From Desulfovibrionales bacterium (GTDB lineage Bacteria; Desulfobacterota; Desulfovibrionia; Desulfovibrionales; Desulfovibrionaceae), in contig JASGMV010000044.1 of assembly GCA_030156255.1 (NCBI GenBank), forward strand, positions 1-34,399: a stretch of 34,399 nt of DNA. Direction: 5' to 3'. Shown in pieces: positions 1 to 26,047 of this stretch (within the stretch, counting starts at the first letter, position 1; every line of letters begins with the position of its first letter). The translations under genes and the position numbers were made by a program. Below the pieces are notes generated by a model. That model was given only the letters and a program-made list of their open reading frames with translations. It had not been told where the DNA came from and did no database searches.

Positions 1-573
1 CTCGTTTTTCTTTTCCTCCTTCATCCGAGTCCCGCAGGGGCAGGTGGGCAGGCCTGCCGCGATCCATTTGGCTGTGGTGCGCACGGTGTAGCCGCATTTC
101 GGGCAGACGACCTTGCGCAGGCGGGTGGTTTGTTTGCGTTTGCCGGTGTGGAGCGGACCGGGGCAGTGGTTCGGGTACGCTCCCAGCTCGGCGACGATCC
201 GCGAGAGCCGGGCTCGTAGCTCCGAGCCGGCGCGGGTGGAGCGCATGGGACCGGTCAGGCCGATCCGCGTCGCCACGATCCGGAACTCCGTGCCGTGTCC
301 CGCCTCCAGTCCCACGGCGGCGTGCACCAACTCGTGCGCCAGAGTTTCGGCCACGGCCAGCGAATCCTTAACCTGAGGTGAAATGAAAATTTCGGTGTGC
401 CCGTCCCGTCCGGGGCTGGTGCTCCAGCACTCGCCCAACGCGCCGTCGCCTCCGGTGGTGAGTCCGCACGAGACGCACAGCCGCTCGGGCAGCGCCACGC
501 CGGCGCGCTCGAACTCCAAGCGCAGCCGGGCGGCGAGCCTCGCCAGCCATAAATCCCGTGTGGTGTCCTCCAT
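1..573 (-). CDS. SprT-like zinc metallopeptidase, 3' end beyond the window
   Basis: Open for 191 codons from an ATG at 573 to the window edge with no stop, so the gene is cut off at its 3' end. Residues 80-84 read HELVH, the HExxH zinc motif, and a third candidate ligand lies in AGHGTEF (91-97), the SprT/Spartan pattern. A zinc ribbon follows, with C157, C160, C178 and C180. SprT-like proteins are ATP-independent metalloproteases; Spartan relatives cut proteins crosslinked to DNA, and such genes are often carried by plasmids and phages. Role here is inferred: protecting or clearing DNA during transfer. No clear Shine-Dalgarno precedes the ATG. It faces away from the transfer genes and has no internal TAG in the visible part. 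Confidence 0.8.
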   Translation of the reverse strand, partial: MEDTTRDLWLARLAARLRLEFERAGVALPERLCVSCGLTTGGDGALGECWSTSPGRDGHTEIFISPQVKDSLAVAETLAHELVHAAVGLEAGHGTEFRIVATRIGLTGPMRSTRAGSELRARLSRIVAELGAYPNHCPGPLHTGKRKQTTRLRKVVCPKCGYTVRTTAKWIAAGLPTCPCGTRMKEEKKNE

Positions 574-868
574 CGGAGCCGTCCATGTTTTGGTGTTTGG
601 CGGGCGATGCGCGCCCGTGACACCGCGATGATGGGCGATCGGCCTTCCAGCCATGATCCGGTGGATAGCGATTTGCTGGGATGCGGCCAATACAAAGCGT
701 TTAAACGCTCCGTGTTGCAGCAGTGAATGCGATGCTGCATGAAGTCATGAGCGGAGAAATATGGAGTCATGGGCAGCAAGGAATCTTCACGAGTAAATCT
801 CGCGTGTGAATGTCAACGTAAACTTCACTCATTGCAGTTGACACAAGATGACATTGAGGTGATTTGCA
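574..868. other. Non-coding stretch with palindromes
   Basis: No convincing gene on either strand. It lies between the divergent SprT-like gene and the first transfer gene and should hold the promoter of the former, which I cannot place. It contains a perfect 14-base palindrome at 696-709 (AGCGTTTAAACGCT) and a hairpin with 7-base arms TGCAGCA/TGCTGCA at 716-739. These could be operator sites; no protein can be assigned to them. Confidence 0.4.
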
Positions 869-896: not shown

Positions 897-1070
897 GCGG
901 TACGAGGAGAGGTCTCTCCTCCGCAAGAGCAAACCAACACACATTTTCATACCGGCTGGTAAAGGCCGCCGGAGCAGATAGATGGCGCACACCATCCTGC
1001 TCCGGTGTTCGGAGCGGGTGACCAAATTTCACCCCGGCTCCGAGGGAAGCGGAGCCAAAGGAGGAGCATC
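897..1070 (+). promoter_or_regulatory. Long structured 5' leader
   Basis: About 170 bases lie between the promoter and the ATG at 1071 and can form several hairpins: GAGGAGAG/CTCTCCTC at 904-921, CCGGAGCAG/CTGCTCCGG at 969-1005, and GGCTCCG/CGGAGCC at 1036-1056. The last ends directly before the Shine-Dalgarno AAAGGAGGAG. This arrangement could regulate ribosome access. I do not recognise a known riboswitch class. Confidence 0.35.
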
Positions 1071-1766
1071 ATGGGATACGCAGCAGTCCGGAGCTATCAG
1101 AGCCCGCAAGCATTGAAGAGGAAGAGGGTTCTGCAATTTGGCGTTCCGGCCATTCTGGCCGCCGTCGCCTTGCTGGTCTTCTGGGGCGTGGACTGGCAGT
1201 GGGGCAGAGACTCCGAAGCCGCGCCGCATCTGGAGCGGAGGGAGCAGAATCTGGCGCAGGAGATGGTGCAAACGCCCGCGGCGCCGACGGTCAAGGTCTC
1301 CGTGGGTGGGAAGATGGGACCGGTGGGCGTCGAGGCCAGCAGGCAGATGACGTCGGAGGAATTCGCGAAGGAGATGAAGGGGCTCGAACGAGCCGTCAAG
1401 TTCGACGTCTCGCTGGCTAGGAATCTCGCTGCGCAGGCCGATCCGCGGATGAAGAAGCACAACCAGTGGGCAATAGAAATTGAAAACCAAGGACTGATTG
1501 GAAGGGAGTTTGATTATGTCTTGCGAGGCGGGATGAAGGCCGACTTTCGTCGCCTTGATATAGCAAAGCTCCTGCGCGGTTTGCCTTCTGAGGAGCGCGA
1601 GTTGCTATATGACGACTGGCTGGATCAGCGCGGGATTCTCAAAGCCAAAAAGGAAAGCTCCATTCCCATTCTGGAGGATATCTGCCGCCGTTATCCGGAT
1701 AATCCGGCGGCGCAAAAGATCATGGCGATCGTGGATTACTCGAAGGAAAACGGCTTGTTCCTATGA
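1071..1766 (+). CDS. Single-pass membrane protein of the transfer module
   Basis: 231 residues, unrecognised. The ATG at 1071 is chosen because a strong Shine-Dalgarno (AAAGGAGGAG) stands just before it. A short basic N-terminus is followed by one hydrophobic segment (about residues 22-40), then a hydrophilic, charged and helical C-terminal part that would lie outside the cytoplasm if the positive-inside rule holds. It ends in TGA followed by a strong terminator at 1793-1823. Its place as first gene before a VirB6-like gene suggests a transfer-apparatus component, but no family motif supports a more exact call. No TAG inside. Confidence 0.7.
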   Translation: MGYAAVRSYQSPQALKRKRVLQFGVPAILAAVALLVFWGVDWQWGRDSEAAPHLERREQNLAQEMVQTPAAPTVKVSVGGKMGPVGVEASRQMTSEEFAKEMKGLERAVKFDVSLARNLAAQADPRMKKHNQWAIEIENQGLIGREFDYVLRGGMKADFRRLDIAKLLRGLPSEERELLYDDWLDQRGILKAKKESSIPILEDICRRYPDNPAAQKIMAIVDYSKENGLFL

Positions 1767-1883: not shown

Positions 1884-4742
1884 GTGCTCCGCCCAATACA
1901 AAAAATACTGGTCATACTCCTGCTGGCGCTGGGCGCGGCGGTGGCCGCGCCGCACGCCGCGCTGGCGGACGATGATAACAAGTCCCCGCTGGCTCAATAC
2001 GAGGGCAATGTCTGGCGGGTCTATTTCAACCAGATGGATTCTGAAACAGGTGGAACAACTTACGCAATTGAGCTTTGCGCAGAAGATAAAACAAATAATC
2101 TTTGCCGCCAATGTGAGCCCGACTACTATCTCACCAAAGATAATACTTGGGAAAAATACAACCCGGAAATCAGCCGCTACGTCTGCGTGAACTGGATCGG
2201 CGATGAAGACGCCGACAACGTCGTTGACTCGGACGGCAGCTGGCTCGCCCAATCGCTGACCGCGCTGACGCTCAACATTACGCGGGTGATGCGTCTGGTC
2301 GTCGAAATCTTCACGCCCAGCGTGGAGCGCATTTTGGACTGGGCTTTTCGCATGCCGCCCGAGCTGCAGGGCATCTGGAACAAGGTGCTGGCCTTTTCCA
2401 ACACCGTGCTGGTGCTGGCCGCAATGGCGGTGGTGGTGCTCAACCTGCTGGGCATCCAGATGAGCAACTACGCCTTCAAGACCTTCGCCCCGAAATTCAT
2501 CTTCGCCGCCATCGGCGCCAACCTCAGCTGGGTCATCGCTTCGCTGGTGCTGGACATCGGCTAGATCGCGTACAACGTCATGCTGAACATCGCCGGCCGG
2601 GGGGATTCAGCCATCGGGATCGCCTACATTCTGGACTACAACTCCTACCAGCAGCTCGGCCGGCTGGCGAGCGGCACGACCTACGGCATCAACGACTGGA
2701 TGCTGTTTCGCGGGGCGATTTTCGACCTGCTGCTCCTGCTGTTCCTGATCGTCCCCATCGTGACCATCTGGGGCGCCTTCATCGTGCGCTACGTCTTTCT
2801 CATGGTGGAAATCGCCGTCGCCCCGCTGGCCTACATCGGGTTCGCCCTGAAGCCCGACCTGTTCGGCAAATACTGGAATACTTTTCTCGATCACGTCTTC
2901 ATGCCGGCCAAAGTGGCGTTCTTCATCGCCATCGGCGTGCTGTTCAAGAGCGCGTACATCAGCATGATGGCCGGCGCATCCGGCTCCAGCGCCGGCGCGG
3001 TCAGCGTCAGCCAGGAGCAATGGGCGCAGGCCGCGCAAGGCGGTAGTTTCGTTGACTCCATCATCTTTTTCGCCGTGTCCGCGGTGTGCATCTTCATCGC
3101 CACCAAAGCCGCCATTTCCAAGACGGCCTACATGGACAAGGCGATGGGAGCCATCACCGGCCTCGCCAAGATGTGGAACAAAGTACCGGTGGGCGGGATG
3201 AGCTGGCTGGCGAAGAAAGGCTTCGGGGCGACGAAAGGAGCCGTCAAACTCAGCGGCAAGGGCGTCGGTTGGGCTGCGGACAAGACCGGCGTCACCGAAA
3301 AACTGCGCCAAGCCGGCGCGGGGACTGTGGGTCAGCATTACCGCGACACCAAAGCCGCCGCCAAAGACCTGTGGAATGATGAAACCGTGAAGAAAGCACG
3401 CACGAAGGCCTCGGGCGCCGGCAAGTGGCTCATGGGGCAGACCGGCGATCTGGGGCGTGACATCGCCCAAGCGGACAGCATCACCGGCGGCGCCAAAATG
3501 GTCTGGGAATCATGGAAAGGCAACATGGACGATCTGGAGAAGGAAGGCCAGCTGAACTGGGCCAAACGCTTCGCCAACGTCGGCCATGTGGGCGACATCG
3601 CCACCGGCGGCGTGCTCAAGGGAACCGGATTCAGCGTGGGCGGCATCAAGGCGTCCATCCAACTCAAGCTGGACAACGAATACTCCAAACACATCCGCGA
3701 CGAGAAATACCGCGACCGCCTCCAGTACGGCACGCGCCAGCAGCTGATCGCCGGCCTCAAAGAGAACGTCGCGGACGCCCGTAAAGGCGACCGCTACGCC
3801 ATGATCGCCGCCGAGCACCATCTCGAAGCACTGAAAAAACACCTCGGGTACATGGGCGTGGACGAGGCCGAAGAGATGAAAAAGGTCTGGGCGGAAATCA
3901 TCGGCAACGAGAAAGGCAAGAACCCGGAGCAGAACATCGTGCGCCGCAGCTATGCCGGCATTTCCGGCGACTATCTCGGGCAAGCGCGCGCCGATAACGT
4001 CAACTTCGCGGACATCAAGCACGGCGCCGACGGACAAATTGAGGGCTTCTACCGCGCCGACAAGGACGGCAATATCTCCGCCATGCTCGATCAGCTCTAC
4101 AAGGACGAGTACAAGGGCATGGATCTGAAAACCGTGTACGACGGCAGCCGGTTCAGCATCAAAAGCAGCAAGGGACAGCCGGCGCCGAAAGTTTTCGAAC
4201 GGATCGCCAATGGCGAAGCCGTGCTGCATCCGGAGTTTAACATCAACAGCGCCGTGCTGAACAACATGTCCGATCCGCACCAGATCGCTTTCAATGAGGT
4301 GCCGGACGGCAACGTCGCCGCCTTTGCCGAGATGACGGAGCACCGCAATCTCGCCAATATTTCGATACTCCAACGCAGCATGACCGAGCTAGACAGTTCC
4401 ATGCGCAAGACCATGAATGTCGAACTGCGCAACGCCATGCAGGAGAAACACGAAGCCATGGCGAAGCTTCTCGAGGTTTACAAAGATGACGGCCTGATGA
4501 AGAAGATCGACGAAGGCCTGAGAAAGATCACCAAAGCTGACGACGAGAAGGCCATCGACTTCGCCAAGCGGCTGTCGCAGGAGGTCAACAAGATCGTGGC
4601 GGATTACGAGAAGAAGGACGCCGCCGGCGCCGTGACCGACAGTGTGAAGGATCGAATGCAGGCCATCAACGCGGCTGACGCCGAAATCCGGAAGGCGCGT
4701 AAGGCGAGCACGTCGTCATCCTCTTCCTCCACCACGCCATGA
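1884..4742 (+). CDS. VirB6/TrbL-like transfer membrane protein, read through an in-frame TAG
   Basis: Codon 227 (2562-2564) is TAG. The upstream part (signal peptide about 1-28, acidic extracellular segment, hydrophobic helices) and the downstream part (several more membrane helices, then a soluble charged C-terminal half) share one frame. The TAG falls within a membrane stretch, between VLDIG and IAYNV. Together they give 952 residues with the layout of large VirB6/TrbL-type inner-membrane proteins of type IV secretion: a polytopic core plus a long soluble tail. Start is GTG at 1884, since the signal peptide begins there. It ends in TGA overlapping the next ATG (ATGA). If TAG stopped translation, the product would lose most of the membrane core. 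The family call rests on topology and style, not on a catalytic motif. Confidence 0.7.
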
Positions 4743-5062
4743 CCCTCCTCTCCGCCATCATCCATCACCGCCCCGAGCAGATCACGGCCGACGACCTGGC
4801 CGAGGCCGCGCCGGACGACCTGCTGGCGGCCATCGCGGGCGTCGATGAGGTGCTGCGCAGCCCCACGCTCTCCGAAGACATGACCGTGAATGACGCGCGG
4901 CGCATGGTGGATGCGATGGGCGAGCTGAATACCTTGCTGGAGCTGGCGTATCATCTGGCCGCCAGCCCGGAGCAGCTGGAAACCAAGGAGCGGGAGTGGG
5001 AGGCGGCCGCGCAGCGGACGGCGGAGGCGTTGCGGAGCAGGAGCGCCGATTCCCGCTCGTGA
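4739..5062 (+). CDS. Small acidic helical protein
   Basis: 107 residues, unrecognised. The start codon overlaps the TGA of the preceding gene (ATGA at 4739-4742), which implies translational coupling and the same operon. The protein is Ala-, Glu- and Leu-rich with no hydrophobic segment, so a cytoplasmic helical protein is likely. It lies between the VirB6-like and M15-like genes, so it probably serves the transfer machinery. Ends in TGA, no TAG inside. Confidence 0.65.
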   Translation: MTLLSAIIHHRPEQITADDLAEAAPDDLLAAIAGVDEVLRSPTLSEDMTVNDARRMVDAMGELNTLLELAYHLAASPEQLETKEREWEAAAQRTAEALRSRSADSRS

Positions 5063-5086
5063 ATCGCCATTTTTCACTCTTGAGCC

Positions 5087-6679
5087 ATGGCGCAGCAAAC
5101 CAACGAAGAGCGCGACCGGCTCGGCAAGGCGCTGGATGAGGTTTTGGCCGACGCAGAGCCGCCGGAGGCGGAGCCTCCCAAAGAGAAAACCTCGAAGCGC
5201 GTGGATATCAAGGCGGATATTTCGGAGCGTGGGCGCCCCGTTTTCGACGACGGCCGGGTCAAGGTCAAAGCCGAGTTGGACAAGCGGCCGGCGGCGGATG
5301 CCGGGAAATCATCTTTGAAGGCGCGCGCCACCGCGGACGGTGAACCGCTGGACATCGAGCTGAAGCGGCAGCCCGCGCCGGCCGGGACTCCGCCGGTCGC
5401 CGGCGAATCGACCTCGCAAACATCGGCGAAAGAGCGAACGGACGCCATCCTGCCGGCGGATGCCGCGCTGCCGGCGCATCCCGAGCCGAAATCCGGCTCC
5501 CGGCCAGCGGAGCAAGGAAGCGGCGGCTCGCCGGTGACGGCCCAATCCCGTTCCCGTTCCCGTCGCGGTCGCCCGGAGACGGCGGCGGTGGTTCGTGGGC
5601 GCACCGATCCGGCCGTCGGCGTTCATCGCGAGCCGGGGCGCGCACCGCGATTCAGCGGGCGGACGCGCGAGGATTCTCTCGGGCGGGCGGGAGAATACGG
5701 CGCGGAGGTGGACCGGCTGGCCGAGTACGAGGAATCGGGCGAGGCGCGCCCCGGCCGGGAGGAACAGAAGCGCGAACGCCGGGAGAACCGCAAGCGTATC
5801 GGTGAAACGGCGGCGGAGTTGGCCAAGTCGGAGGCCGGGCGGCAAGCCCGGCGCATGGCGGGGAAAGCCGTCGGGAAAGCGGCCAAGGCGGCCGGCCGTA
5901 GCGCACTGGCCGCCATCGCGGAGACCGCGCCGGTGTGGGCGCCGATTCTTCTGGCAGCTATTTTGTTGCTTTGGTTTGTCATCGTCATGATTAACGTCGG
6001 CAACCAGAAGGTGACCGTCGATTTGCCCGGAGGCGGCCATAAAACGGTCACGCTTGCCGAAAGCTACGGTTAGACGGATAAAGCCGGCCGGCAGATGATC
6101 TACGGCGGGTCCGCCTACAATGCTCGCAGCTACACCATACCCACGACCTCCACTGGCGGGAGCGGCGTCGCCACATCCTCCGATTAGGAGGGCGGTTCCG
6201 ATCTGCACAAGAAGAACGCTCTTAATCTTGAGGCGGCCGGCGTCACCATCAGCTCCACCGCCGGCTGCGCCAACGAGTACAACAGCTCCTGCACCAGCCT
6301 CGACGGGATGCAGCAGGCCACCCTCGACGCGGCGGTGAATCTGGCCTCCGAGATCGGCGCCTTCCGGCTCTCCGGCGGCACGGAGTGCGGGCACTCCGGC
6401 TGGGCGTGCGACGAAGATCGCCCCACCGAAGCCGAATGCTCCGGCGTGGATTCGCACGCCTGCGGTGCGAAGTTTGACGTGGGGGTGGGGAAATCCGGCG
6501 ATGTGTCCGTGACGAGCAACATTCTGTTCATTCTGCAAAACTATCCCAAAACCACCTCCGGCGGCTACGACATCTACCGCGGCGTGCAAATCGGCGGCTA
6601 CACGTACGACATCATCGACGAGCGCACCTCGCCCGACGGCGCGCATTTCGACTTCGCGCCGCAATCGAGCGGGGGATGA
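5087..6679 (+). CDS. Membrane-anchored M15-like cell-wall peptidase with two in-frame TAG codons
   Basis: 530 residues if codons 329 (6071-6073) and 367 (6185-6187) are read as sense. Residues 1-280 are charged, Arg/Glu/Pro-rich and low in complexity. One membrane helix lies at about 283-302. A Ser/Gly/Thr-rich linker, which holds both TAGs, leads to a C-terminal domain. That domain has the M15-type zinc-peptidase signature: GGTECGHSG, then SHACGAKFDV (H457, D464) and a late GAHFDF (H520), matching the SHxxGxAxD...HxD pattern. Such domains cut peptidoglycan and are common accessories of type IV secretion. With TAG as stop, the enzyme domain would be lost and the membrane anchor kept. Only a weak Shine-Dalgarno precedes the ATG. 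Confidence 0.7.
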
Positions 6680-6681
6680 TG

Positions 6682-6709
6682 TTCGCCTGTGGCGCGGATG
6701 TGCTACAAT
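6682..6709 (+). promoter_or_regulatory. Possible extended -10 promoter
   Basis: TGCTACAAT gives an extended -10 (TACAAT at 6704-6709) 20 bases before the ATG at 6730. The -35 (TTCGCC at 6682-6687, 16-base spacer) is poor. If used, the leader is very short, and the gene that follows has no Shine-Dalgarno. Confidence 0.35.
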
Positions 6710-6729
6710 GACCACAATTCACTGCCCGT

Positions 6730-7293
6730 ATGTCCTTGATCGACTCGTTCGTCGCCCGGCAAAGCGCCAACCACCAGGCGCTGACCAGTTTGCTTTACGG
6801 GAACGTGTTTTTGGTGGGGGTGTTTTATCTGGCTGCGTTCGGAGCCGCTCTGGCCGTGGTCATCCTGCTGGAATGCGGCGTGGTCTGGCTGGCGCGCCGT
6901 CGCGGTTGGTCTGCTTCGGCCGCGGCCGCCAAATCGGACTCCAAGATGTGGCGGCGCATGAATGAGCGCTACGACCGCCTGACGGCCTGCGGCGCCAAGG
7001 CCAATGGGGAGCGCCTCGGCCGGTGGGTGTTCCTGCTGGTCATCACCGTTCTGCTCGTGGTTTTTCGGGAGAACGGTGGATATTTGGCGTACGTGCTGCC
7101 CGGGCTGTATCTGATTCTTTTCGGGTGGAAGGCCTATTTCGGCGCCCGCCACGCCAACTACGTGCGCACCGTGATTCTCTTTCTGGCCTTTTTGGTGACT
7201 TTGACCATGCAGGGCTGGCTGGCGGCTGTCTTTGCGCCCGCCATGTTTTTCATTCTGATGAGTCCGCTGGCTGAGGATGAGGGGGAGGGGTGA
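6730..7293 (+). CDS. Polytopic membrane protein
   Basis: 187 residues, unrecognised. Hydrophobic segments lie at about 27-54, 97-111, 117-131 and 143-175, with a basic, Ala-rich cytoplasmic loop between the first and second. There is no Shine-Dalgarno; the sequence before the ATG is A/C-rich, as in the minus-strand genes of the element. It is the last plus-strand gene of the left module and converges on the serine recombinase, overlapping its 3' end by 44 bases. Ends in TGA. Probably part of the transfer apparatus, judged from position only. Confidence 0.65.
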   Translation: MSLIDSFVARQSANHQALTSLLYGNVFLVGVFYLAAFGAALAVVILLECGVVWLARRRGWSASAAAAKSDSKMWRRMNERYDRLTACGAKANGERLGRWVFLLVITVLLVVFRENGGYLAYVLPGLYLILFGWKAYFGARHANYVRTVILFLAFLVTLTMQGWLAAVFAPAMFFILMSPLAEDEGEG

Positions 7294-8938
7294 TTTCGTG
7301 GGTGGCGGGAGAGAGATTTGGTACAATGTCTTCGGAGGTTTTGAGCAAAAAGGTTCGAACTTCTTGCAAGAGGCTCCACCAGAAGGAACAACCGGAACCG
7401 GACGCCCCCCTGCGCCTTGCCGCAATGCGGATTTGGGCTGGTTCGAACCGGGGCGTTTCGTCGGAATTTGCTTTTTGCGATTCTTGGAAGACTCGAAAGC
7501 ACGAATGCAGCTCCACATGCAACTTTCGGTCTTTCAGGCAGAGGTTCGAACCGAGCGCAGACAAGATGCGTCGCCGGGTTTCGATATCGCCATCGCGAAA
7601 AACAAGGCGAGCGTTGCTCGCGAAGTCGAAAAGGCGTTCAGCCTTCGTTTGCAGGTCCTCTCCGTTTTGGGTGTCTCGCTCAAGCGCCAAATTCAAACTT
7701 TGGCGTTCTTTTTCGTACGCCTTTTGGCTGGACTGGTACGCTTGGTCGGAGATGACGCCGGAAACCAGTTTGTCCGTCAAAGTGGCGGTCTTGGCATCCA
7801 ACCGATTGATCTGTTTCTGGATTTGGATGCGTTCATTGGCGAATGTCCTGTCGTTCTCGGCCTATGTCCGCTGCAATTTTTCCAAAACCCAGTCCGCGAA
7901 CTCCCGGGGAGGCTGGATGGACGCCAATAATTCCTCCATCTGCCGCTCCAACTCGGATTGGCGCAGATATGGTTGGCCGCACCGGATGTTTCTGTTTCTT
8001 TTTGTGCAGCGCATGTAATGATAAACATGGCGATTTCCGTTCTTTTGCACCTTCACCTTGGGTGGTTCAGACGTGATCATGCAGCCGCACTCGCCGCAGC
8101 GCAGCAGTCCGTTCCAGAGCGGCCGGAGTTTTTGCTGCCGAGCGCGTTTTCCCGTGATGATGCTCCCGGCGCGGTCGAGCTCGGCCAACGAGATCATCGG
8201 CTTGTGCCGGCCGTGAACACGTTGGCCTTTCCACTTGAACCACCCGGTGTAGAACGGATTACGGAAGATTTTATGAACAACGCTGAGTGACAACTCGGCT
8301 CCATAACGGGTGCGCAGCTGCAACTCGTTATTGGCAATGTTGCGAAGCTGGGGGACGCTGTACTCACCCGTCAGCAAGAGATCCCAAAGCCGGCGCACCT
8401 TGCTCCACGCGGCCTCATCGGGGAAGATTCGCCGGTCGCCCTCGAGGCCGCCCGGATCGTTGCGGTATCCCAGTGGAGCCATGCACGGCATCCAGCCGCG
8501 CTCCACTTTGCGATCCATTCCTCGGCGTATATCGCGGCTGAGGTCGAGAGAGTATTGCGTGGCATTGGCGAATTCCAGTCCCATGATCAGCAGGTTGTCG
8601 CCTTTGTTGAATCTCCGGTCCGACGTCAGGATGTGATCGATGTTTCCGTGAGTGAGGGCGTACTGGATCGCTCCGGCGTCGAGGGCGTTGCGCGCCAGCC
8701 GGTTGACCTTCCAGCACAAAACGCCCACTGGCTCTTCTTGCGCTGCGATGGCCGCCATCAGAGCGCCGAAGCCTTCTCGGCCGGGTTTGGCGCCGCTCCC
8801 GGTGTCGCTGAAGACATCGATGATCTCTAGCCCGAGATTGACGCGCATCCTCTCTGCCCATTCCAATTGGCTGGGGATGGACTGAATCTGCTTGGATGCG
8901 TCTTCCGTGGATTTGCGGGCGTAGATGAAGTAGCGCAT
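7250..8938 (-). CDS. Large serine recombinase, read through an in-frame TAG
   Basis: 562 residues. The N-terminal resolvase domain begins MRYFIYARKSTED, with the catalytic serine at residue 10 (YARKS). The recombinase domain follows, then a zinc ribbon (RCGECGCM and a later RCTKRNRNIRCG). The C-terminal coiled coil is cut at codon 359 by TAG (7862-7864). Upstream ends EKLQRT and downstream resumes AENDRTFANERIQIQKQ in the same frame, a continuous coiled coil of the kind these enzymes need for integration control. It ends in TGA at 7250. Family role: strand exchange between attP and attB through a phosphoserine link. The tail (GCSFWWSLLQEVRTF) resembles, from memory, tails of recombinases in Candidate Phyla Radiation genomes. 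No Shine-Dalgarno is visible. Confidence 0.88.
7352..7552. repeat. Three copies of the palindrome-like GGTTCGAAC
   Basis: GGTTCGAAC occurs at 7352-7360, 7440-7448 and 7543-7551; the last two extend to the perfect palindrome GGTTCGAACC. Spacings are 88 and 103 bases, neither a multiple of three, so the copies lie in different phases of the recombinase frame. GGTTCGA is also the T-arm consensus of tRNA genes. An attachment or accessory binding site near the 3' end of the recombinase gene is possible. Confidence 0.4.
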
Positions 8939-8973
8939 GTCGCGGGAAGAAAGTCTGGCGGCGCCTTTGTAGT

Positions 8974-9204
8974 TTACCGGACCTCTTCATCGGCGCCTAG
9001 TTTTTCGATACTTTTTGAAGAAATTTTGATTTCGGCGTGAACCACAGCATGGCAGAGCCGCAGAAAAGCCGTCGCCTCATCCTCCGCCTGTTCGGGCGTG
9101 AGGCGACGGCCGGTGTGAACCCGCATCAGCTCCGAAAACTCCGCCACGTCGTCCGGTGACAGGCGCGGCGGAGCCTCGGAGAATGGGCAAATGTCACTCC
9201 TCAT
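8974..9204 (-). CDS. Small protein downstream of the methyltransferase operon
   Basis: 76 residues, unrecognised, acidic and helical. The ATG at 9204 lies inside the end of the upstream gene, whose TGA is at 9194-9196; this overlap indicates coupling. It ends in TAA at 8974-8976, 36 bases before the recombinase start. No membrane segment or catalytic motif is visible. The order methyltransferase, small gene, this gene, recombinase suggests one transcription unit. Confidence 0.55.
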   Translation of the reverse strand: MRSDICPFSEAPPRLSPDDVAEFSELMRVHTGRRLTPEQAEDEATAFLRLCHAVVHAEIKISSKSIEKLGADEEVR

Positions 9205-9595
9205 CCGCCAGAATGACGTCATGCACGTAATTGCGGGCCAGCTTGCGCGCCAGATGCGCGGCGCTCTTCTCGGACAGGAACTCGGGGACAGACTTGCGTT
9301 TCTCACGCATCAGCTCCGCGAACTCCCCCGGATGAACCGCGATCCAGCCGTCCACCGCCTTGTTACGCCTCGCGTTCTCGGCGCGAGTCCGCGCCAAGTC
9401 CTGTTCGCGAAGCAATCGCGCCCGCCGCTCGCGGCGAAGGATGCGGCGGATCATAGCCTTCTCGGCCGGGGTGAGTTGGGACATGGGATATGGTGAATGA
9501 CGGCCCTATGATGGCGGGTTGGCGTTCCAAAACTGATCCGAGGCGCGCCGGATTGTTCCGGATTCCGTCGCCCCGCGGTTTTCGATGGCGCTCAT
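9194..9595 (-). CDS. Small basic helical protein, probable in-frame TAG near its N-terminus
   Basis: Two starts are possible. From ATG 9595, which overlaps the methyltransferase TGA (ATGA at 9592-9595), the protein has 133 residues and TAG at codon 30 (9506-9508). From ATG 9484 it has 96 residues and no TAG, and the bases before that ATG (CATTCACCAT) resemble the A/C-rich leaders of neighbouring genes. The body is rich in Arg and Glu (AEKAMIRRILRRERRARLL) and helical, with no hydrophobic segment. Function unknown; a nucleic-acid-associated role is conceivable. Ends in TGA. Because of the alternative start, this is the least certain of the TAG cases. Confidence 0.55.
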
Positions 9596-10488
9596 GGCCG
9601 CTGGCTCAATTCTTTGAGCTGGCGGAAGTACCGGTAGTGCGTCGATGCCCGCCACCTCTCCAGCACCTCGTCCCGATCGTTGAATTCCAGCGCTAGCGGT
9701 CGGGCGTTGGTTCTGATGCGCCCCTTCTTCTGCGCCAAGATGGCCTTCATGCGAATGTTGACGCCGGGGAACGTTCCTCTCGGCAGCCGAACCTCCGCGA
9801 GCGAGGAGAAGGCCGCGTCGAAAAAGCGCCGGGTTGCGGCGTTGACCAGCCATCGTGCGTGGTAGTCCGGGCAGATGAAGGCGATGAAGCCGTCCGGCCG
9901 CAGGCTTTGCTCCGCGCGCTCCAGGTAGTAGCTGACGGCCGAGACCATGCCCGGCTCGTCTCCCAGCGGGTGTGAGCGCACCGCTAGGTTGACGAACGGC
10001 GGGTTGCCCAGGATGTAGTCGCAATCCGGGATCGGCTGCATGGCGCGCATGTCGGCGCATTCGATGCTGGTGGAGGGGAAAAGCCGAGCGCAGACCCGGT
10101 GCGCCATCGGATCCTTTTCCACGCCGTGCAGCTCGCAGCCGTCCAGATAGTTGAAGAAGGAGCCCTTGCCGCAGCAGATATCCGCAACGCGCGAGCCGGG
10201 CTCAACCTCCAGCATCTCCACCAGCGTGCGGCACAACTCGTCCGGGGTGAAGAATTGCCCCTGCTCAAATCGACGCTTGGCGCGGGTGTACTCGCCGAAG
10301 TCGGCGAACTCGGCCCGGTTGAGTTGGTGCAGCCCCCCGTTGCCGGTGTAGTTGCGGTAGATGAAGTGCGGCTGCGAAGACTACACGGCCAGCTCGTTGT
10401 ATTTGCGGCGGCCGTCGTGGTCGCGGTGGATGGTCGTCACGGGATAGCGGACGCGGGCGGTGTAGCGCCCGGTAGTGATGTTGTTCAT
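9592..10488 (-). CDS. N6-adenine DNA methyltransferase, read through an in-frame TAG
   Basis: 298 residues. TAG at codon 36 (10381-10383) separates the first 35 residues (ending KYNELAV) from SSQPHFIYRNYTG and the rest. Behind it come EQGQFFTPDE, the usual N-terminal region of N-6 methylases, then VADICCGKGSFFNYL (motif I, SAM binding) and GNPPFVNL (motif IV, NPPF catalytic). The first ATG after the TAG lies well past the motif I and NPPF regions and no obvious restart exists before FFTP, so the TAG must be passed for a normal enzyme from this start. Role: methylation of adenine in DNA, probably to protect the element or set its own methylation; no restriction partner is seen. Start ATG 10488 follows the repeated hairpin leader. 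Ends in TGA overlapping the next ATG. Confidence 0.85.
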
Positions 10489-10509
10489 CGTGATGGTGAA
10501 TGGTGAAAT

Positions 10510-10531
10510 GGCGGGATTTAGCCCTCCCGCC
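10510..10531 (-). repeat. Intercistronic hairpin, copy 1
   Basis: Arms GGCGGGA/TCCCGCC with an 8-base loop, 21 bases before the methyltransferase ATG. Read on the minus strand, it follows the stop of the gene at 10553 and is followed by an A/C-rich leader without Shine-Dalgarno. The same unit recurs at 10998, 11712 and 12494. Confidence 0.7.
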
Positions 10532-10552
10532 GGGGGCGTGGTGCTTTCTCCT

Positions 10553-10975
10553 TCAGTACTGTTCAAACGCTCCAAAGTGGAGGCGAATAGCCCGCCCTGG
10601 CCGTAGCTCATATGGACGACCATCCGTCAGCGTGAATACATAGGCTTGCTTGCTGGCATTCTTGATGAAGATCCAATCCGACTCCCAACAAAACACTCCG
10701 ACCGGTCGGAAGTAACTGTCTCTGAAGTTTAGGCTGCCGCGCAGTGTCTCAAGCGGATAGTCTTGCACCGCCTCGCCGGGAGCTATGGTGTAGCGGAGAC
10801 TATACTCATTGAAAAATCGCACCTTCGTGTCGAAATCCTCCTTAGTTCGCACGGATTGCAACATGTTCCATGCCAAATCTCCGTGACCGCGAGGGCCAGG
10901 ATACATGTCGCCATTGAACTCTATGGATTGATGAAACGAATCGTCAGTGATGAGGTATAATGTTCCTCTGGTCAT
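10553..10975 (-). CDS. Accessory protein of unknown function
   Basis: 140 residues, unrecognised. It starts MTRGTLYLITDD and is mixed alpha/beta in look, rich in aromatic residues, with no signal peptide or membrane helix. It is preceded by the repeated hairpin and A/C-rich leader (10976-11019) and has no Shine-Dalgarno. Ends in TGA, no TAG inside. Position in a run of small accessory genes of a mobile element suggests a host-takeover or anti-defence role, which is only a guess from context. Confidence 0.6.
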   Translation of the reverse strand: MTRGTLYLITDDSFHQSIEFNGDMYPGPRGHGDLAWNMLQSVRTKEDFDTKVRFFNEYSLRYTIAPGEAVQDYPLETLRGSLNFRDSYFRPVGVFCWESDWIFIKNASKQAYVFTLTDGRPYELRPGRAIRLHFGAFEQY

Positions 10976-10997
10976 GTGTTGTAGTGAATGTTGAAAT

Positions 10998-11019
10998 GGC
11001 GGGATTTGCCCCTCCCGCC
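10998..11019 (-). repeat. Intercistronic hairpin, copy 2
   Basis: Arms GGCGGGA/TCCCGCC with an 8-base loop, 22 bases before the ATG at 10975. It lies directly after the TGA of the gene at 11034. The loop differs slightly from the other copies while the arms are identical. Confidence 0.7.
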
Positions 11020-11033
11020 AGGGGCTTTTGCGT

Positions 11034-11687
11034 TCAGTCGGCGAAGGTGAAGTACTTCATCTTGCGTGTGCGCGAGACGGCCTCGGGCAGCCGAACCCAC
11101 AGGCCGTCCATGACGGGGTGGACGCCGTCCCATTTTTGGGCGCCGTTGCCGCTCCAGACTTGGGTCATGCCGTCCCGCGCCTTAATGTCGTGTTCCAAGT
11201 CGTCGAGAGTGAGGTCCGTCTCAATGGTGTTTTGGCCGAGAAAGTTGCGCCAGACGCTGTGCAGGAGGTGCTCCCGCTCCATCTCGTGAACGCGACCCCG
11301 ACCCCAGCCTTGCAGTTCATCGCAGATCACTCGCAACATGGTTTGCAGCCAACTGGTGTCGATGACCGGCTCGGTCAGCAGGTGCACGCCTTCTTGACGC
11401 GTCCCGGCGATGAAGCATGTCGTCCGGCGTTGGAGGGTTTGGCCGATGAGGCCTTCAATGGCCGGGGTGGCAAGCCAGCCGGAGCAGATTGCGACCCTTT
11501 CCTCCGGGCTGCGAAAGTCCCAGACCAGCTCCAGTTTCCAGCTCGCGAACTCGGGAATGCCTTGCGACTACATGATCCGCTTGAGTTCGCCGTGCAAAGC
11601 GTCATCGAATCGCTTGCGCGTTTCGGCGTTCCAAAATCCGCCAAGCGCTTCGACCTTGGCGATGTTGGACATGGTGAATTTTTTCAT
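11034..11687 (-). CDS. Unknown protein read through an in-frame TAG
   Basis: 217 residues, unrecognised. TAG is codon 40 (11568-11570): upstream ends GELKRIM, downstream resumes SQGIPEFASWKLELVW in the same frame. The first 39 residues are basic and helical (SNIAKVEALGGFWNAETRK). The remainder is a soluble domain rich in Trp, Glu and Asp. The start ATG at 11687 is preceded by a 24-base A/C-rich leader and the repeated hairpin, as for its neighbours, which supports a start ahead of the TAG. With TAG as stop only a 39-residue peptide would be made. Ends in TGA. Confidence 0.7.
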
Positions 11688-11711
11688 CTGAGTGAAAGGA
11701 ATGGTTAAAAT

Positions 11712-11733
11712 GGCGGGATTTTCCCCTCCCGCC
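11712..11733 (-). repeat. Intercistronic hairpin, copy 3
   Basis: Arms GGCGGGA/TCCCGCC, 8-base loop, 24 bases before the ATG at 11687 and 10 bases after the stop of the gene at 11744. Same arms as copies 1, 2 and 5. Confidence 0.7.
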
Positions 11734-11743
11734 GGGGGTTAGG

Positions 11744-12016
11744 TCAGGAACACCAAACCGAAGTGTATCCGTCGCCATCTTTCTCAATCTCTCGGCGGAG
11801 GCTGGTGATGATCTCACGGGTTTGATCGGTCATCTGGTCTCCGAGGTCCTTCTCGACTTGATCGAGATTTGCTTCCCAAATAACAATCTCTCCGTATTCA
11901 TCGTTTCGCTGATCATCCCAGTAGTTTTCCGCGGCCTCGACAAACTGCTAGTCGCGCCACATATTGAAAATTTCGTCATGCAGATTTAACTCGTAAGTGT
12001 ACGCTCGAACAGACAT
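11744..12016 (-). CDS. Small acidic protein, MSxRAY family, in-frame TAG
   Basis: 90 residues. Begins MSVRAYTYELNLHDEIF. TAG is codon 23 (11948-11950), between MWRD and QFVEAAENYWDD, and the frame then runs 67 codons to TGA at 11744. The whole product is strongly acidic and helical. The first residues MSVRAY match MSIRAY of the gene at 12530-12799, so the two look like paralogues, and both carry an early TAG. Preceded by a hairpin with an 8-base loop and an A/C-rich leader. Function unknown; small acidic proteins of this kind are typical accessory genes of phages and conjugative elements. Confidence 0.65.
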
Positions 12017-12042
12017 TGTGATGTGGTAAAGGTTGAAATGAT

Positions 12043-12062
12043 GCCGGTATTGCGCGACCGGC
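12043..12062 (-). repeat. Intercistronic hairpin, copy 4 (divergent arms)
   Basis: Arms GCCGGT/ACCGGC with an 8-base loop, 26 bases before the ATG at 12016. The arm sequence differs from the other copies while loop length and distance to the start codon are kept, which points to selection on structure rather than sequence. Confidence 0.55.
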
Positions 12063-12069
12063 GGCGCGA

Positions 12070-12468
12070 TCATTTCGTCAGCTCGCGGAGAGCAGATAGG
12101 ATTTCGCCCGCGAAAGCCTCCCAGCAAAGACACTCGCCGTGATAGAACAGCGCCTCAATTCTGCTGTCTTCACGCGCGATCTCCTCAAACCCGAATTCAC
12201 CAATCCAGCGCTCCGTCCATTCGATAAAATCTCGCGCGTTGTTCCATAAGTCATCGGAGCCGTCGCTTGTTTGTGAGTCTGCCCACTCCTCCACGATATC
12301 GCGCCAGCAGTGTCCTTGCTCATCCCTGTCGCTCCGAAAGTCGTTTCCCTCACGTCCCTTCAGGTCTTCAGCCTTGAAGTTGATGTCACAGAGGAAATCT
12401 TTGACCGCCTCGGAATTCTCAAAATCAGCGCCCATGCGCTCGGTGATTTGTGTGATGATGTTTTTCAT
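12070..12468 (-). CDS. Small acidic protein of unknown function
   Basis: 132 residues, very rich in Glu and Asp, helical, with several Trp residues; begins MKNIITQITERMGADF. Unrecognised. No TAG inside; ends in TGA at 12070. The upstream leader has the repeated hairpin at 12494-12515 and no Shine-Dalgarno. Its charge and size could fit a DNA mimic or anti-defence protein, but nothing in the sequence proves this. Confidence 0.6.
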   Translation of the reverse strand: MKNIITQITERMGADFENSEAVKDFLCDINFKAEDLKGREGNDFRSDRDEQGHCWRDIVEEWADSQTSDGSDDLWNNARDFIEWTERWIGEFGFEEIAREDSRIEALFYHGECLCWEAFAGEILSALRELTK

Positions 12469-12493
12469 TACGAAAACAAAATGATGTAAATTT

Positions 12494-12515
12494 GGCGGGA
12501 TTTAACCCTCCCGCC
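12494..12515 (-). repeat. Intercistronic hairpin, copy 5
   Basis: Arms GGCGGGA/TCCCGCC, 8-base loop, 25 bases before the ATG at 12468 and shortly after the TGA of the gene at 12530. Confidence 0.7.
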
Positions 12516-12529
12516 GGGGGCGTGGCGCT

Positions 12530-12799
12530 TCAGAAGGCCACGAACGATAAACCTTCCTGGCCTTTTTCCATGGAGTGCAGTATTTCCTTGAGGATGAGCT
12601 TGCTTTCTTCTTCCTGCACCTTGGACAAAGCATCTTCAAGCTCCTCCTTTTCGAGGTAGAACTACCCGCCGCAATCGTCGTTTAGCTGCGGGTAGATCGA
12701 GTCACCCAGGACATCCATGATCTCCGTATCGCACGTGAGATTGAATGCTGGGGACGACTCATATTCCAGCGTGATGATTTTGTAGGCTCGAATGGACAT
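12530..12799 (-). CDS. Small acidic protein, MSxRAY family, in-frame TAG
   Basis: 89 residues. Begins MSIRAYKIITLEYESS. TAG is codon 46 (12662-12664), between NDDCGG and FYLEKEELEDALSKV; the frame continues 43 codons to TGA. The part after TAG is a clear amphipathic helix with heptad-like spacing, so it reads as real protein. Paralogue of the gene at 11744-12016 by its N-terminus. It is the first gene of the minus-strand block and would be transcribed from the inverted-repeat region at 12925-13045. Confidence 0.65.
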
Positions 12800-12836
12800 A
12801 GCGAATGTGGTAAGATGTAAGTGAATGCGAAAGGTT

Positions 12837-12853
12837 CGGGAGTTCTTCTCCCG
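12837..12853 (-). repeat. Leader hairpin, copy 6 (weaker match)
   Basis: Arms CGGGAG/CTCCCG with a 5-base loop, 37 bases before the ATG at 12799. The position before a start codon without Shine-Dalgarno matches the other copies, but loop and spacing differ. On the plus strand it is followed by a T-run, so it could instead terminate a plus-strand transcript. Confidence 0.4.
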
Positions 12854-12924
12854 GCCTTTTTCTCGGGCGGGTCTCTGCTCATGTTGAAAATGAAAAGAAA
12901 GAATCGAAGCGGATAAACACTTCA

Positions 12925-13045
12925 CCCCCCACATAGCAGCTGGATGCCGCGGTCAAGTCCGAACATCAAATAGAAGCCTTCCGCTCGCCGCGTGCAGTCG
13001 CGGCGGGACTTGAGGGCCAGGCATCCCTGGCTGCTACAATGTGGG
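12925..13045. promoter_or_regulatory. Long imperfect inverted repeat with promoter-like arms
   Basis: The left arm (about 12925-12960) and right arm (about 13005-13045) are inverted copies sharing the blocks GGACTTGA, GGCATCC, GCTGCTA and TGTGGGG, around a GC-rich centre of about 45 bases. Each arm contains a promoter-like pair: TTGACC with TATGTG (15-base spacer) toward the minus-strand genes, and TTGAGG at 13010-13015 with TACAAT at 13035-13040 (19-base spacer) toward plus. It probably drives the minus block. A role as replication or transfer origin is possible. It also accounts for the non-coding stretch 12800-13135. Confidence 0.45.
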
Positions 13046-17721: not shown

Positions 17722-17973
17722 ATGATCGCTCAACTCTTCGGCTCGATTCAGGAATTCATAGCCCTGGCCTTCATCATCGGCACGGTCTGTCTGATGATCG
17801 GCCTGAAGGGCGCCGGCAAGTGGCTGATGTCGCTGGTGGGACTGTCCGTGCTGGCGTCCCTTCTGTTCGGATTTGTCCGCGAGCATCCGATATTTTTCGG
17901 TGTGGCGGCGATTCTGGCTCTGCTCGGCGGGCTGGCTTTGCTCTTCCGTCGTAGAAACAGGACGGAGGTCTGA
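17722..17973 (+). CDS. Small two- or three-helix membrane protein
   Basis: 83 residues, hydrophobic along most of its length (about 10-26, 32-50 and 55-75) with a short basic C-terminus. Shine-Dalgarno AAGGAG, 15 bases after the previous gene. Directly upstream of the coupling protein, which itself has N-terminal membrane helices, so it may be its membrane partner. Ends in TGA. Confidence 0.6.
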   Translation: MIAQLFGSIQEFIALAFIIGTVCLMIGLKGAGKWLMSLVGLSVLASLLFGFVREHPIFFGVAAILALLGGLALLFRRRNRTEV

Positions 17974-17977
17974 ACCG

Positions 17978-19669: not shown

Positions 19670-20045
19670 TCGCACCGCACCGCTCGCCAATCTGGGCCGC
19701 AAGGTCGAGCCTTCTGAAGTGGCCCGGCTTTTCGAGGTTGCGCAGTCCACGGTTCTGCGTCATCCTGAGCGGTACGGTGGGGTCAGGATTGGCCGCCAAT
19801 GCTTGTTCTTTGACAATCTCATAGGCGAAACTGTCAGGAGTTATCATGCCGCACAAGTTCAAGCGCAACGGCGCATGGACCAAGCAATGGTACGGCCAGG
19901 TGAAAGTGAACGGCAAGAGGTTTCGGGGGCCGCTCATGGCGACGCGGGCCGAAGCCGTGGAATGGGAGGCGGAAAAGCGCAGGCGGTTGGCGACCATGCC
20001 GGAACAGGAGATTGTGGCGAAAACCGCCACGGTCTCCTTGATTGA
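19662..20045 (+). CDS. Excisionase-like helix-turn-helix protein
   Basis: 127 residues as the frame runs to TGA at 20043. The first 60 residues form a MerR/excisionase-type helix-turn-helix (VEPSEVARLFEVAQSTVLR, then VRIGRQCLFF), the usual layout of small recombination directionality factors. It overlaps the end of the coupling-protein gene by 8 bases and the integrase by about 200. The part after residue 62 is Gly/Arg-rich and may carry little function, being an out-of-frame reading of the integrase. A place directly before the integrase fits a role in excision. Confidence 0.55.
   Translation: MPDRTAPLANLGRKVEPSEVARLFEVAQSTVLRHPERYGGVRIGRQCLFFDNLIGETVRSYHAAQVQAQRRMDQAMVRPGESERQEVSGAAHGDAGRSRGMGGGKAQAVGDHAGTGDCGENRHGLLD

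Positions 20046-21028: not shown

Positions 21029-21031
<3 letters not shown>
20997..21031 (-). terminator. Terminator of the tRNA operon
   Basis: On the minus strand CCAGCC, a 15-base loop, GGCTGG and then TTTTATTT. It begins within the CCA end of tRNA-Asp and faces the integrase terminator. Confidence 0.65.
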
Positions 21032-21105
<74 letters not shown>

Positions 21106-25831: not shown

Positions 25832-26047
25832 GCGCTCTCCTTGGCTGTGTGGCTTCATGGCGTCGAACGGCTCCGCTCGCCGCCCGCTCGGGAAGGGGAT
25901 ATCTCACTTGAAGCGATAATATGTCAACATGGTTACAACAGGGACAATGAGACGGGAACGGGCGGGAGTAAAGCGCTTCGGAACACGCCGGTGAGAGATT
26001 CCGGCCGACGCTGTGCGACGGTCAACGCATGGCGGCAAGCCTGTTTT

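What the first reader, a model, noticed from the sequence alone, without database searches (positions are those of the whole stretch)
1884..12799. TAG appears to be a sense codon in eight genes of the element
Nine in-frame TAG codons (2562, 6071, 6185, 7862, 9506, 10381, 11568, 11948, 12662) interrupt eight reading frames that continue without shift into recognisable protein: the rest of a VirB6-like membrane core, an M15-type peptidase domain, a recombinase coiled coil, and the FFTP region of a methyltransferase. No TAA or TGA interrupts these genes and no frameshifts are seen. Random decay would give all three stops; if equally likely, nine of nine TAG has a chance of about 1 in 20,000. TAG to Gln is known from some phages and ciliates, and TAG to pyrrolysine from some bacteria; which applies here cannot be told. 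In a conjugative element this seems undescribed.
Basis: partly seen in the sequence, partly recalled or inferred. Interest (0 to 1): 0.95.

Follow-up and report, generated by a model that had tools for sequence, protein, structure and literature searches.

The report
TAG-as-glutamine code in integrated mobile element
A mobile DNA unit sitting in a bacterium's chromosome appears to use the stop codon TAG as the amino acid glutamine in its own genes while the bacterium around it still uses TAG to end proteins, a trick known from viruses that would be new for a conjugation-type element.

Summary
Better evidence is a second, diverged copy on contig C27 of the same genome: its VirB6-like and recombinase genes hold four TAGs each and no TAA or TGA. 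Together 16 of 16 are TAG (p about 1e-5; about 3e-5 if the one shared TAG counts once). The recombinases are conserved past the TAGs, at TAG positions that differ between copies. Homologues at seven TAG columns jointly favour glutamine, though single columns vary. The host uses TAG as a stop (transketolase, LeuA, LeuC) and has release factor 1. None of 41 complete tRNAs has a CUA anticodon, and PylS is absent. The unit has a VirB6-like core and serine recombinase related to Patescibacteria proteins and sits in a tRNA-Asp island with a tyrosine integrase and a coupling protein. Best reading: TAG=Gln (code 15) in a non-phage mobile unit, read by a suppressor tRNA outside this assembly. Whether this host decodes it is open.

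The parts
1..690 (-). SprT-like zinc metallopeptidase gene (HELVH), no TAG; its last codons and TGA lie on contig C82
   Evidence: phrog_6361 at 3.7e-42; 67-69% identical in the C27 copy; end read; the metallopeptidase name rests on the HELVH motif, recalled
1005..1766 (+). small membrane protein, no TAG
   Evidence: first part 59% identical in the C27 copy
1884..4742 (+). VirB6-like membrane protein, 952 aa, in-frame TAG at 2562 (codon 227)
   Evidence: second copy with 4 TAGs; transmembrane core related by profile to proteins of small-genome bacteria, five of the seven rows read from named Patescibacteria; VirB4-type ATPase gene near it at the two loci examined
2562..2564 (+). TAG codon, also TAG in the C27 copy; seven homologues have H,Q,N,H,S,N,N here
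4739..5062 (+). small protein, no TAG
   Evidence: 80% identical over 87 residues in the C27 copy
5087..6679 (+). membrane-anchored protein with an M15-like peptidase motif (SHACGAKFD...DGAHFDF), in-frame TAGs at 6071 and 6185, motif downstream of both
   Evidence: motif label recalled; no Pfam match, no informative PDB match; not found in the C27 copy
6730..7293 (+). membrane protein, no TAG
   Evidence: 49% identical in the C27 copy
7250..8938 (-). large serine recombinase, 562 aa, in-frame TAG at 7862-7864 (codon 359)
   Evidence: Resolvase, Recombinase and Zn_ribbon_recom domains; 60% identical to the C27 copy, which has 4 TAGs at other positions
9194..9484 (-). small conserved gene, no TAG; the TAG at 9506 lies upstream of its start
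   Evidence: 91% identical in the C27 copy, no stop
9592..10488 (-). N6-type DNA methyltransferase with in-frame TAG at 10381-10383, upstream of the FTP and NPP motifs
   Evidence: N6_Mtase; the best phage and plasmid matches begin 7 residues after the TAG, weaker ones at 24-25% identity run across it
11034..11687 (-). protein of unknown function with TAG at 11568-11570
   Evidence: coding score positive on both sides
11744..12133 (-). small protein (MSVRAY...) with TAG at 11948-11950
12530..12934 (-). small protein (MSIRAY...), by eye a paralogue of the previous one, TAG at 12662-12664
17873..19669 (+). VirD4/TraG-type coupling protein of the surrounding island, no in-frame TAG
   Evidence: T4SS-DNA_transf 4.7e-27; translation
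19846..20985 (+). tyrosine integrase of the island
   Evidence: Phage_integrase 9.8e-22
21029..21105 (-). tRNA-Asp(GTC), intact side of the attachment site; its 3' part is repeated at C27:13043-13089 (47 bases, 100%)
23831..25858 (-). host transketolase that ends at TAG (contrast case)
   Evidence: domains complete before the TAG

Best explanation
A mobile unit (about 13 kb here, a second diverged copy on contig C27) uses TAG as a sense codon, most likely glutamine, in its VirB6-like, peptidase, recombinase, methyltransferase and small genes, while the chromosome around it uses TAG as a stop. Shown: the TAG-only pattern in two copies, conservation past the TAGs in the recombinase, host TAG stops, release factor 1 in the host. 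Inferred: the codon is read by an amber-suppressor tRNA-Gln(CUA), charged by the host's own glutamine system and competing with release factor 1, so that full-length transfer and recombination proteins appear only when that tRNA is present. The tRNA is not in the assembled genome; it would sit on an unassembled or unbinned part of the element, on another element in the cell, or in the donor.
For: 16 of 16 in-frame stops in nine genes of two copies are TAG, p about 1e-5. The second copy's recombinase is 60% identical with its TAGs at other positions. Recombinase dN/dS is 0.26 overall, 0.35 after the window TAG, 0.16 if the variable tail is left out. Opposite the five recombinase TAGs the other copy has CAG, CAA, GAG, TTG and CGG. 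One VirB6 column is TAG in both copies and H,Q,N,H,S,N,N in seven homologues. Summed over seven TAG columns Q ranks first (13.3; E 10.0, K 5.4); in controls, sets of five true Q columns give Q first in 93% of draws, sets of any other residue in 0-6%. None of 22 gene ends in the two copies is TAG, though for the nine TAG-bearing genes that is so by construction; against 11 of 73 host ORFs. Host genes end at TAG past complete domains. prfA is present. 340 of 715 code-15 phages had no recognised CUA tRNA (PMC11210395, passage), so its absence here is not decisive.
Against: No CUA tRNA in the genome. Taken singly, Q is the best residue in two of six scored columns; the others prefer E, L, R and S. 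The stop-symmetric scan is TAG-rich in host DNA too (21 of 38). The host-trained coding score after the window recombinase TAG is near zero, 0.03. VirB6 dN/dS is 0.70 at dS about 1. The island's genes between 13 and 21 kb carry no in-frame TAG (five genes, 2064 codons). No other genome with a TAG-rich relative was found. There is no proof of translation.
Confidence: 0.7

Rival explanations
1. The unit evolved under a TAG=Gln code elsewhere (a recoded donor, or a helper phage's tRNA) and now lies in this standard-code host without a suppressor; its long genes are silent or truncated here, a dormant immigrant. (This shares the recoding claim with the best explanation and differs on where decoding happens.)
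For: No CUA tRNA among 41 complete tRNAs and RF1 present; only the nested unit, not the island genes, carries TAGs; many recombinase relatives and VirB6-like matches are in Patescibacteria.
Against: The TAG-bearing genes of both copies are open apart from TAG, which argues that decoding was available until recently. The tRNA set of the bin is itself incomplete (no tRNA-Ile-GAT, no tRNA-Ala-TGC), so absence is weak. No recombinase with more than one TAG was seen in the 150 rows listed from 379 genomes of a Patescibacteria phylum.
Confidence: 0.3
2. The genes are decaying pseudogenes and all stops happen to be TAG.
For: TAG is the likeliest stop for this codon make-up, 44-51%, and crude scans of host DNA are TAG-rich too. 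The C27 copy lacks the peptidase gene. No VirB4 of the one family sought is in the bin.
Against: 16 of 16, p about 1e-5; recombinase dN/dS 0.26; one TAG shared by two copies whose dS is about 1. In the 150 Patescibacteria-phylum recombinase rows listed, 12 carry one or two stops, in all TAA 9, TAG 3, TGA 2, and none has more than one TAG; one of the three TAGs was checked and is the gene's natural end.
Confidence: 0.08
3. Pyrrolysine or another amino acid is inserted at TAG.
For: Pyrrolysine is read from UAG in some bacteria (recalled); E and K rank second and third in column scoring.
Against: No PylS over the cut-off: best 29.8 bits against 178; Q ranks first in sum.
Confidence: 0.05
4. No dedicated tRNA: ordinary glutamine tRNAs (CUG or UUG) misread UAG at low level, giving a little full-length protein as regulatory readthrough.
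For: Gln fits the columns best in sum; host tRNA-Gln(CTG) and (TTG) are present.
Against: Two to four TAGs in one gene would multiply low readthrough to near zero; RF1 is present; the anticodon stems of the two tRNA-Gln look ordinary by eye (sequences).
Confidence: 0.07
5. The unit is a remnant or relative of a code-15 temperate phage or phage satellite rather than a conjugation-type element.
For: The recombinase matches phage integrase family phrog_95, the methyltransferase and the SprT-like protein match phage families; code 15 is known in phages.
Against: VirB6-like core with a VirB4-type ATPase gene near it at the two loci examined. Among 10 proteins of the unit and its surroundings given to PHROGs no head, tail or terminase family appeared. 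Five scans of viral contigs with unit proteins found no relative.
Confidence: 0.12

Closest known systems
Code-15 (TAG to Gln) bacteriophages such as Lak and crAss-like phages
   Same: TAG read as glutamine in a mobile element inside standard-code hosts, in late-stage genes; about half carry no recognised CUA tRNA (PMC11210395, passages; PMC10746230, passages)
   Different: Here a chromosomally integrated unit with a VirB6-like protein and a large serine recombinase, no virion gene seen; TAG is sparse (16 of 181 Gln-type codons in nine genes)
UGA-recoded Gracilibacteria
   Same: Same recombinase family read through a reassigned stop: 5, 11, 15 and 16 in-frame TGA in the best matches of four Gracilibacteria loci
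   Different: There the whole cell is recoded (recalled) and the codon is TGA; here only the unit, and TAG
Patescibacteria loci with VirB6-like and VirB4-like genes
   Same: VirB6-like core matched by profile in 14 of 33 genomes that hold a recombinase relative, some weakly, most but not all named Patescibacteria; VirB4-type ATPase near it at two loci, one from a Parcubacteria genome and one from a record titled only uncultured bacterium
   Different: None of the 15 VirB6-like rows holds a TAG, two hold one TGA; the host here has a 3.8 Mb genome and no VirB4 of that family in the bin

Membership tests
Code 15 (TAG to Gln) mobile element | In-frame TAG in many conserved genes, other stops not | tested here: met
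   16 TAG, 0 TAA, 0 TGA inside nine genes of two copies
Code 15 (TAG to Gln) mobile element | TAG columns hold glutamine or close residues in homologues | tested here: met
   Q ranks first summed over seven columns, with controls; singly Q leads in two of six columns, and family columns vary widely
Code 15 (TAG to Gln) mobile element | TAG not used as terminator by the element | tested here: inconclusive
   0 of 22 gene ends, but 9 of the 22 by construction; 0 of the other 13 is only mildly unusual at the host rate of 11 of 73
Code 15 (TAG to Gln) mobile element | Suppressor tRNA with CUA anticodon | tested here: not met
   None found; not strictly defining, since 340 of 715 code-15 phages had none recognised; the bin's tRNA set is incomplete
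Code 15 (TAG to Gln) mobile element | Full-length protein with Gln at UAG | not testable with these tools
   needs proteomics
Pyrrolysine use | PylS and tRNA-Pyl | tested here: not met
   best PylS_Cterm match 29.8 bits, cut-off 178; no CUA tRNA found
Integrative conjugative element | Integrase and tRNA attachment site | tested here: met
   tyrosine integrase beside tRNA-Asp with a 47-base repeat on C27
Integrative conjugative element | Coupling protein | tested here: met
   T4SS-DNA_transf at 17873-19669
Integrative conjugative element | VirB4-type ATPase | tested here: not met
   no P-loop_TraG match at E 0.01 in the bin; one family model only, and the element is cut at the contig end
Integrative conjugative element | Relaxase | tested here: inconclusive
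   relaxase-like ORF on C82:23938-24918 by motif recall, no Pfam match; its link to this island is not proven

The most novel reading that the evidence does not exclude
A conjugation-type integrated element keeps its recombinase, transfer-channel and peptidase genes in a private TAG=Gln code inside a standard-code chromosome, so that it is locked by code and switched on only when a suppressor tRNA is supplied: a genetic-code switch for horizontal transfer.
Probability: 0.4. Interest if true: 0.95.

Novelty: new variant of a known kind. Interest (0 to 1): 0.82.

Why it matters
Stop-codon reassignment by a mobile element against its host's code is known from phages. In a chromosomally integrated unit with conjugation-type genes it would mean that a private code can persist in an element inherited with the chromosome, that one tRNA could gate integration and transfer, and that such genes are easily overlooked because standard annotation reports them as fragments. 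It also offers a testable case of one chromosome with genes written in two codes side by side.

Tried and rejected
Suppressor tRNA: the whole-genome tRNA model gave 43 matches, of which 41 are complete tRNAs with other anticodons and two are tRNA fragments. ARAGORN on C27 and C82, relaxed Rfam scans of the unit regions, a hand-written CUA cloverleaf scan of C69, C27 and C82 (in a later check it recovers 19 of 20 known tRNAs) and a genome pattern scan whose 18 hits are no more than the 20 of its control (ARAGORN was run on 8 of the 18 loci, pairing on all 18) found none. tRNA-Leu with anticodon TAG reads CUA codons, not UAG.

Relatives: VirB6 in 198 genomes matched only this genome. The two genome-contig scans: VirB6 found nothing, the recombinase found 56 loci. 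Five viral-contig scans found nothing. Plasmid searches with VirB6 protein and unit DNA found nothing; a phage DNA search gave two short methyltransferase matches; a small unit protein found no phage match. In 395 genomes of the same phylum the recombinase profile at E 1e-40 matched 10 genomes; only this genome's matches hold TAG (four, and one plus the gene's own TGA end); one other row holds one TGA. In one search, besides Gracilibacteria, one locus had one TAA, one had one TGA and one (L084) had three TGA, one TAG and one TAA.

Dropped from the TAG count: 9506, and C27:4525-5316 (-), first called with one TAG, because homologues of two window genes lie on the other strand there. Genes were found as frames open under TAG read-through, so a gene broken by TAA or TGA could be missed; the stop-symmetric scan was run for that reason, with the mixed result told above. 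For this, and because the shared TAG may be one event, I lowered confidence in the best explanation from 0.72 to 0.70 and raised the decay rival from 0.06 to 0.08.

Host frames: of ten read-through frames given to Pfam, five have a domain ending before the TAG (hybrid kinase, LeuC, LeuA, FKBP, chagasin), one more a weak PAS match before it, one (integrase) has the TAG upstream of its start, one holds no TAG and two had no match; in none does a matched domain span a TAG. Other such frames were not tested.

A structure job on the piece after the second TAG of the peptidase gene gave pLDDT 41 and was not used. A first look at one distant recombinase with a TAG printed nothing; repeated, the TAG is at the end of the gene. 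The ArgRS family search was of no use.

Host name: not obtained; records of the window's own genome may be left out of the named collections (note). Of four papers I saw search passages only; of the rest only listings.
Full report
What was checked. The window is the whole of contig C69 of a 3.84 Mb genome in 106 contigs, 99.3% complete. The eight TAG codons at 2562, 6071, 6185, 7862, 10381, 11568, 11948 and 12662 interrupt seven genes in frame, and reading continues without shift. The ninth, at 9506, lies between the methyltransferase gene and a small gene that begins at ATG 9484, and is dropped.

How strong is TAG-only. From the actual codons a random one-step nonsense change gives TAG in 44-51% of cases, so eight of eight in the window has p of 0.0015-0.005. 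That alone would be suggestive only.

The second copy. A search of 198 genomes (this one and relatives) with the VirB6-like protein matched just this one, at two places: the window and C27:2107-4383, 32% identical, with three TAGs in the matched stretch. The start of C27 carries the same gene order: SprT-like, small membrane protein, VirB6-like (876 aa, four TAGs), small protein, membrane protein, serine recombinase (four TAGs) and two small genes; the peptidase gene is missing. The first 99 bases of C69 and C27 are identical and the last 79 of contig C82 match them, so the assembly probably broke at a shared sequence. The two TAG-bearing C27 genes hold no TAA or TGA; the other six homologous genes hold no stop in their aligned parts. 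Together 16 of 16 are TAG, p about 1e-5 to 2e-5 (2e-6 if only C-to-T and G-to-A changes are allowed). One TAG is shared; counting it once, p is roughly 5e-6 to 4e-5.

A control with mixed result. Because genes were first found as frames open under TAG read-through, I scanned for all three stops alike, asking for open, coding-like sequence on both sides (loosest setting). On the gene strand of the units it finds six of the window's eight TAGs and three of the eight on C27, no TGA, and two TAA that are the ends of the C27 VirB6-like and recombinase genes. It also flags antisense sites within the units, TAG and TGA, and in host DNA 21 of 38 flagged sites are TAG, from gene ends and antisense frames as far as examined. 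So the scan does not set the unit apart by itself; homology across the TAGs and the second copy do.

Are the genes alive. The recombinases are 60% identical over 562 codons, dN 0.30 and dS 1.14; after the window TAG dN 0.38 and dS 1.09, and 0.26 against 1.62 if the variable tail is left out. At the five recombinase TAG columns the other copy has GAG, TTG, CAA, CGG and CAG. The host-trained coding score after the window TAG is only 0.03, but the protein there is conserved. VirB6 is more diverged, dN/dS 0.70, and says little. One VirB6 TAG is shared by the copies, in a conserved hydrophobic stretch; of 11 homologue rows aligned seven have a residue there, H, Q, N, H, S, N, N, five of the seven from named Patescibacteria and two from records titled uncultured bacterium.

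Which amino acid. For seven TAG columns (five recombinase, two VirB6) I scored each residue against the other copy and the homologues with BLOSUM62. In sum glutamine ranks first (13.3), then E (10.0) and K (5.4); W, C and F are last. In controls on five known recombinase columns at a time, true glutamines gave Q first in 93% of draws and other residues in 0-6%. Singly, of the six columns printed, two prefer Q and the others E, L, R and S. The alignments were made with TAG written as Q, which may lean slightly; the TAG row itself was left out of the scoring. Two further VirB6 TAGs of C27 with unsure alignment were not scored. No PylS reaches the cut-off.

The host. It uses TAG as a stop: 11 of 73 long host ORFs (mechanical ORFs), and genes with complete Pfam domains end there: transketolase in this window, LeuA, LeuC, a hybrid kinase, FKBP and chagasin-like genes on C27. 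Release factor 1 is present at 541 bits; a second match (C68, 281 bits with the prfA model) is taken to be release factor 2. None of 22 gene ends in the two units is TAG, nine of them by construction.

The tRNA. 43 matches to the tRNA model comprise 41 complete tRNAs, none with CUA, and two fragments. Targeted scans agree, and the hand-written scan recovers 19 of 20 known tRNAs. The set lacks tRNA-Ile(GAT) and tRNA-Ala(TGC), often in rRNA operons (recalled), so some sequence is missing from the bin. Among 715 phages predicted to use code 15, 375 carry a CUA tRNA (PMC11210395, passage), so absence is common even there.

What the unit is. The recombinase is a large serine recombinase with 56 named relatives at 25-38% identity, mostly Patescibacteria and Omnitrophota. 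The VirB6-like core matches by profile in 14 of 33 genomes searched, some weakly, and at the two neighbourhoods examined a VirB4-type ATPase gene is near. The unit sits inside an island: a tyrosine integrase and a coupling protein lie between it and tRNA-Asp at 21029-21105, and 47 bases of the 3' part of that tRNA recur at C27:13043-13089. The two units are therefore, by inference, near opposite ends of one island and in opposite orientation; the middle is not assembled, and how C82 fits is not settled. Five island genes between 13 and 21 kb have no in-frame TAG in 2064 codons (about four would be expected at the unit's density).

Mechanism. Shown: reassignment pattern, host stops, RF1. Inferred: a tRNA-Gln(CUA) charged by the host competes with RF1; without it the recombinase, VirB6-like protein, peptidase and methyltransferase are cut short and the unit is silent; with it they are made. 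In phages, recoding is thought to hold back late proteins (PMC10746230, passages). Whether this host has the tRNA, or the unit is dormant here, cannot be told.

Comparison. Same phylum: 395 genomes, 10 with the recombinase profile at E 1e-40, TAG only in this one. A Patescibacteria phylum: 379 genomes, 172 with matches; among the 150 rows listed (counted by hand, more are not listed) 12 have one or two stops, TAA 9, TAG 3, TGA 2, and none more than one TAG. The TGA-rich Gracilibacteria matches (5, 11, 15, 16 TGA) show that a truly recoded recombinase is visible by this method. In nine literature searches of the held library no conjugative or integrated non-phage case was seen in the listings.

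Noticed in passing
L031 (C14:12611-12683), L032 (C103:2047-2105), L175 (C8:56810-56837), L189 (C106:65924-65953): Fragments that look like parts of tRNA-Arg(ACG), tRNA-Thr(CGT), tRNA-Arg(TCT) and the 3' end of a tRNA-Glu, probably attachment-site scars of further integrated islands in this genome.
   Followed up: no
L047 7834-12691 (C27): Low-GC stretch (about 41-46%) between the second unit and the attachment site with a Dam-like methylase, a HIT-like protein and a 1075-residue multi-domain protein (names by eye).
   Followed up: partly
window 10505-12525: A recurring intergenic motif (gcgggatt...cctcccgcc) between the small genes of the minus strand, about four copies by eye, looks like a hairpin between gene cassettes.
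   Followed up: no
window 8974-9306 and 9194-9484: Two overlapping minus-strand reading frames, both conserved at protein level in the C27 copy (61% and 91%).
   Followed up: partly
C82:23938-31236 (L059): Relaxase-like and MobC-like (by eye), ArdC-like and HepT-like genes next to the shared contig end; may belong to the same island, link unproven.
   Followed up: partly
L084: A recombinase relative in a named MAG (bacterium isolate DBS2-1.bin102) holds three TGA, one TAG and one TAA in the matched stretch, an ordinary-looking broken copy and a contrast to the TAG-only genes here.
   Followed up: no
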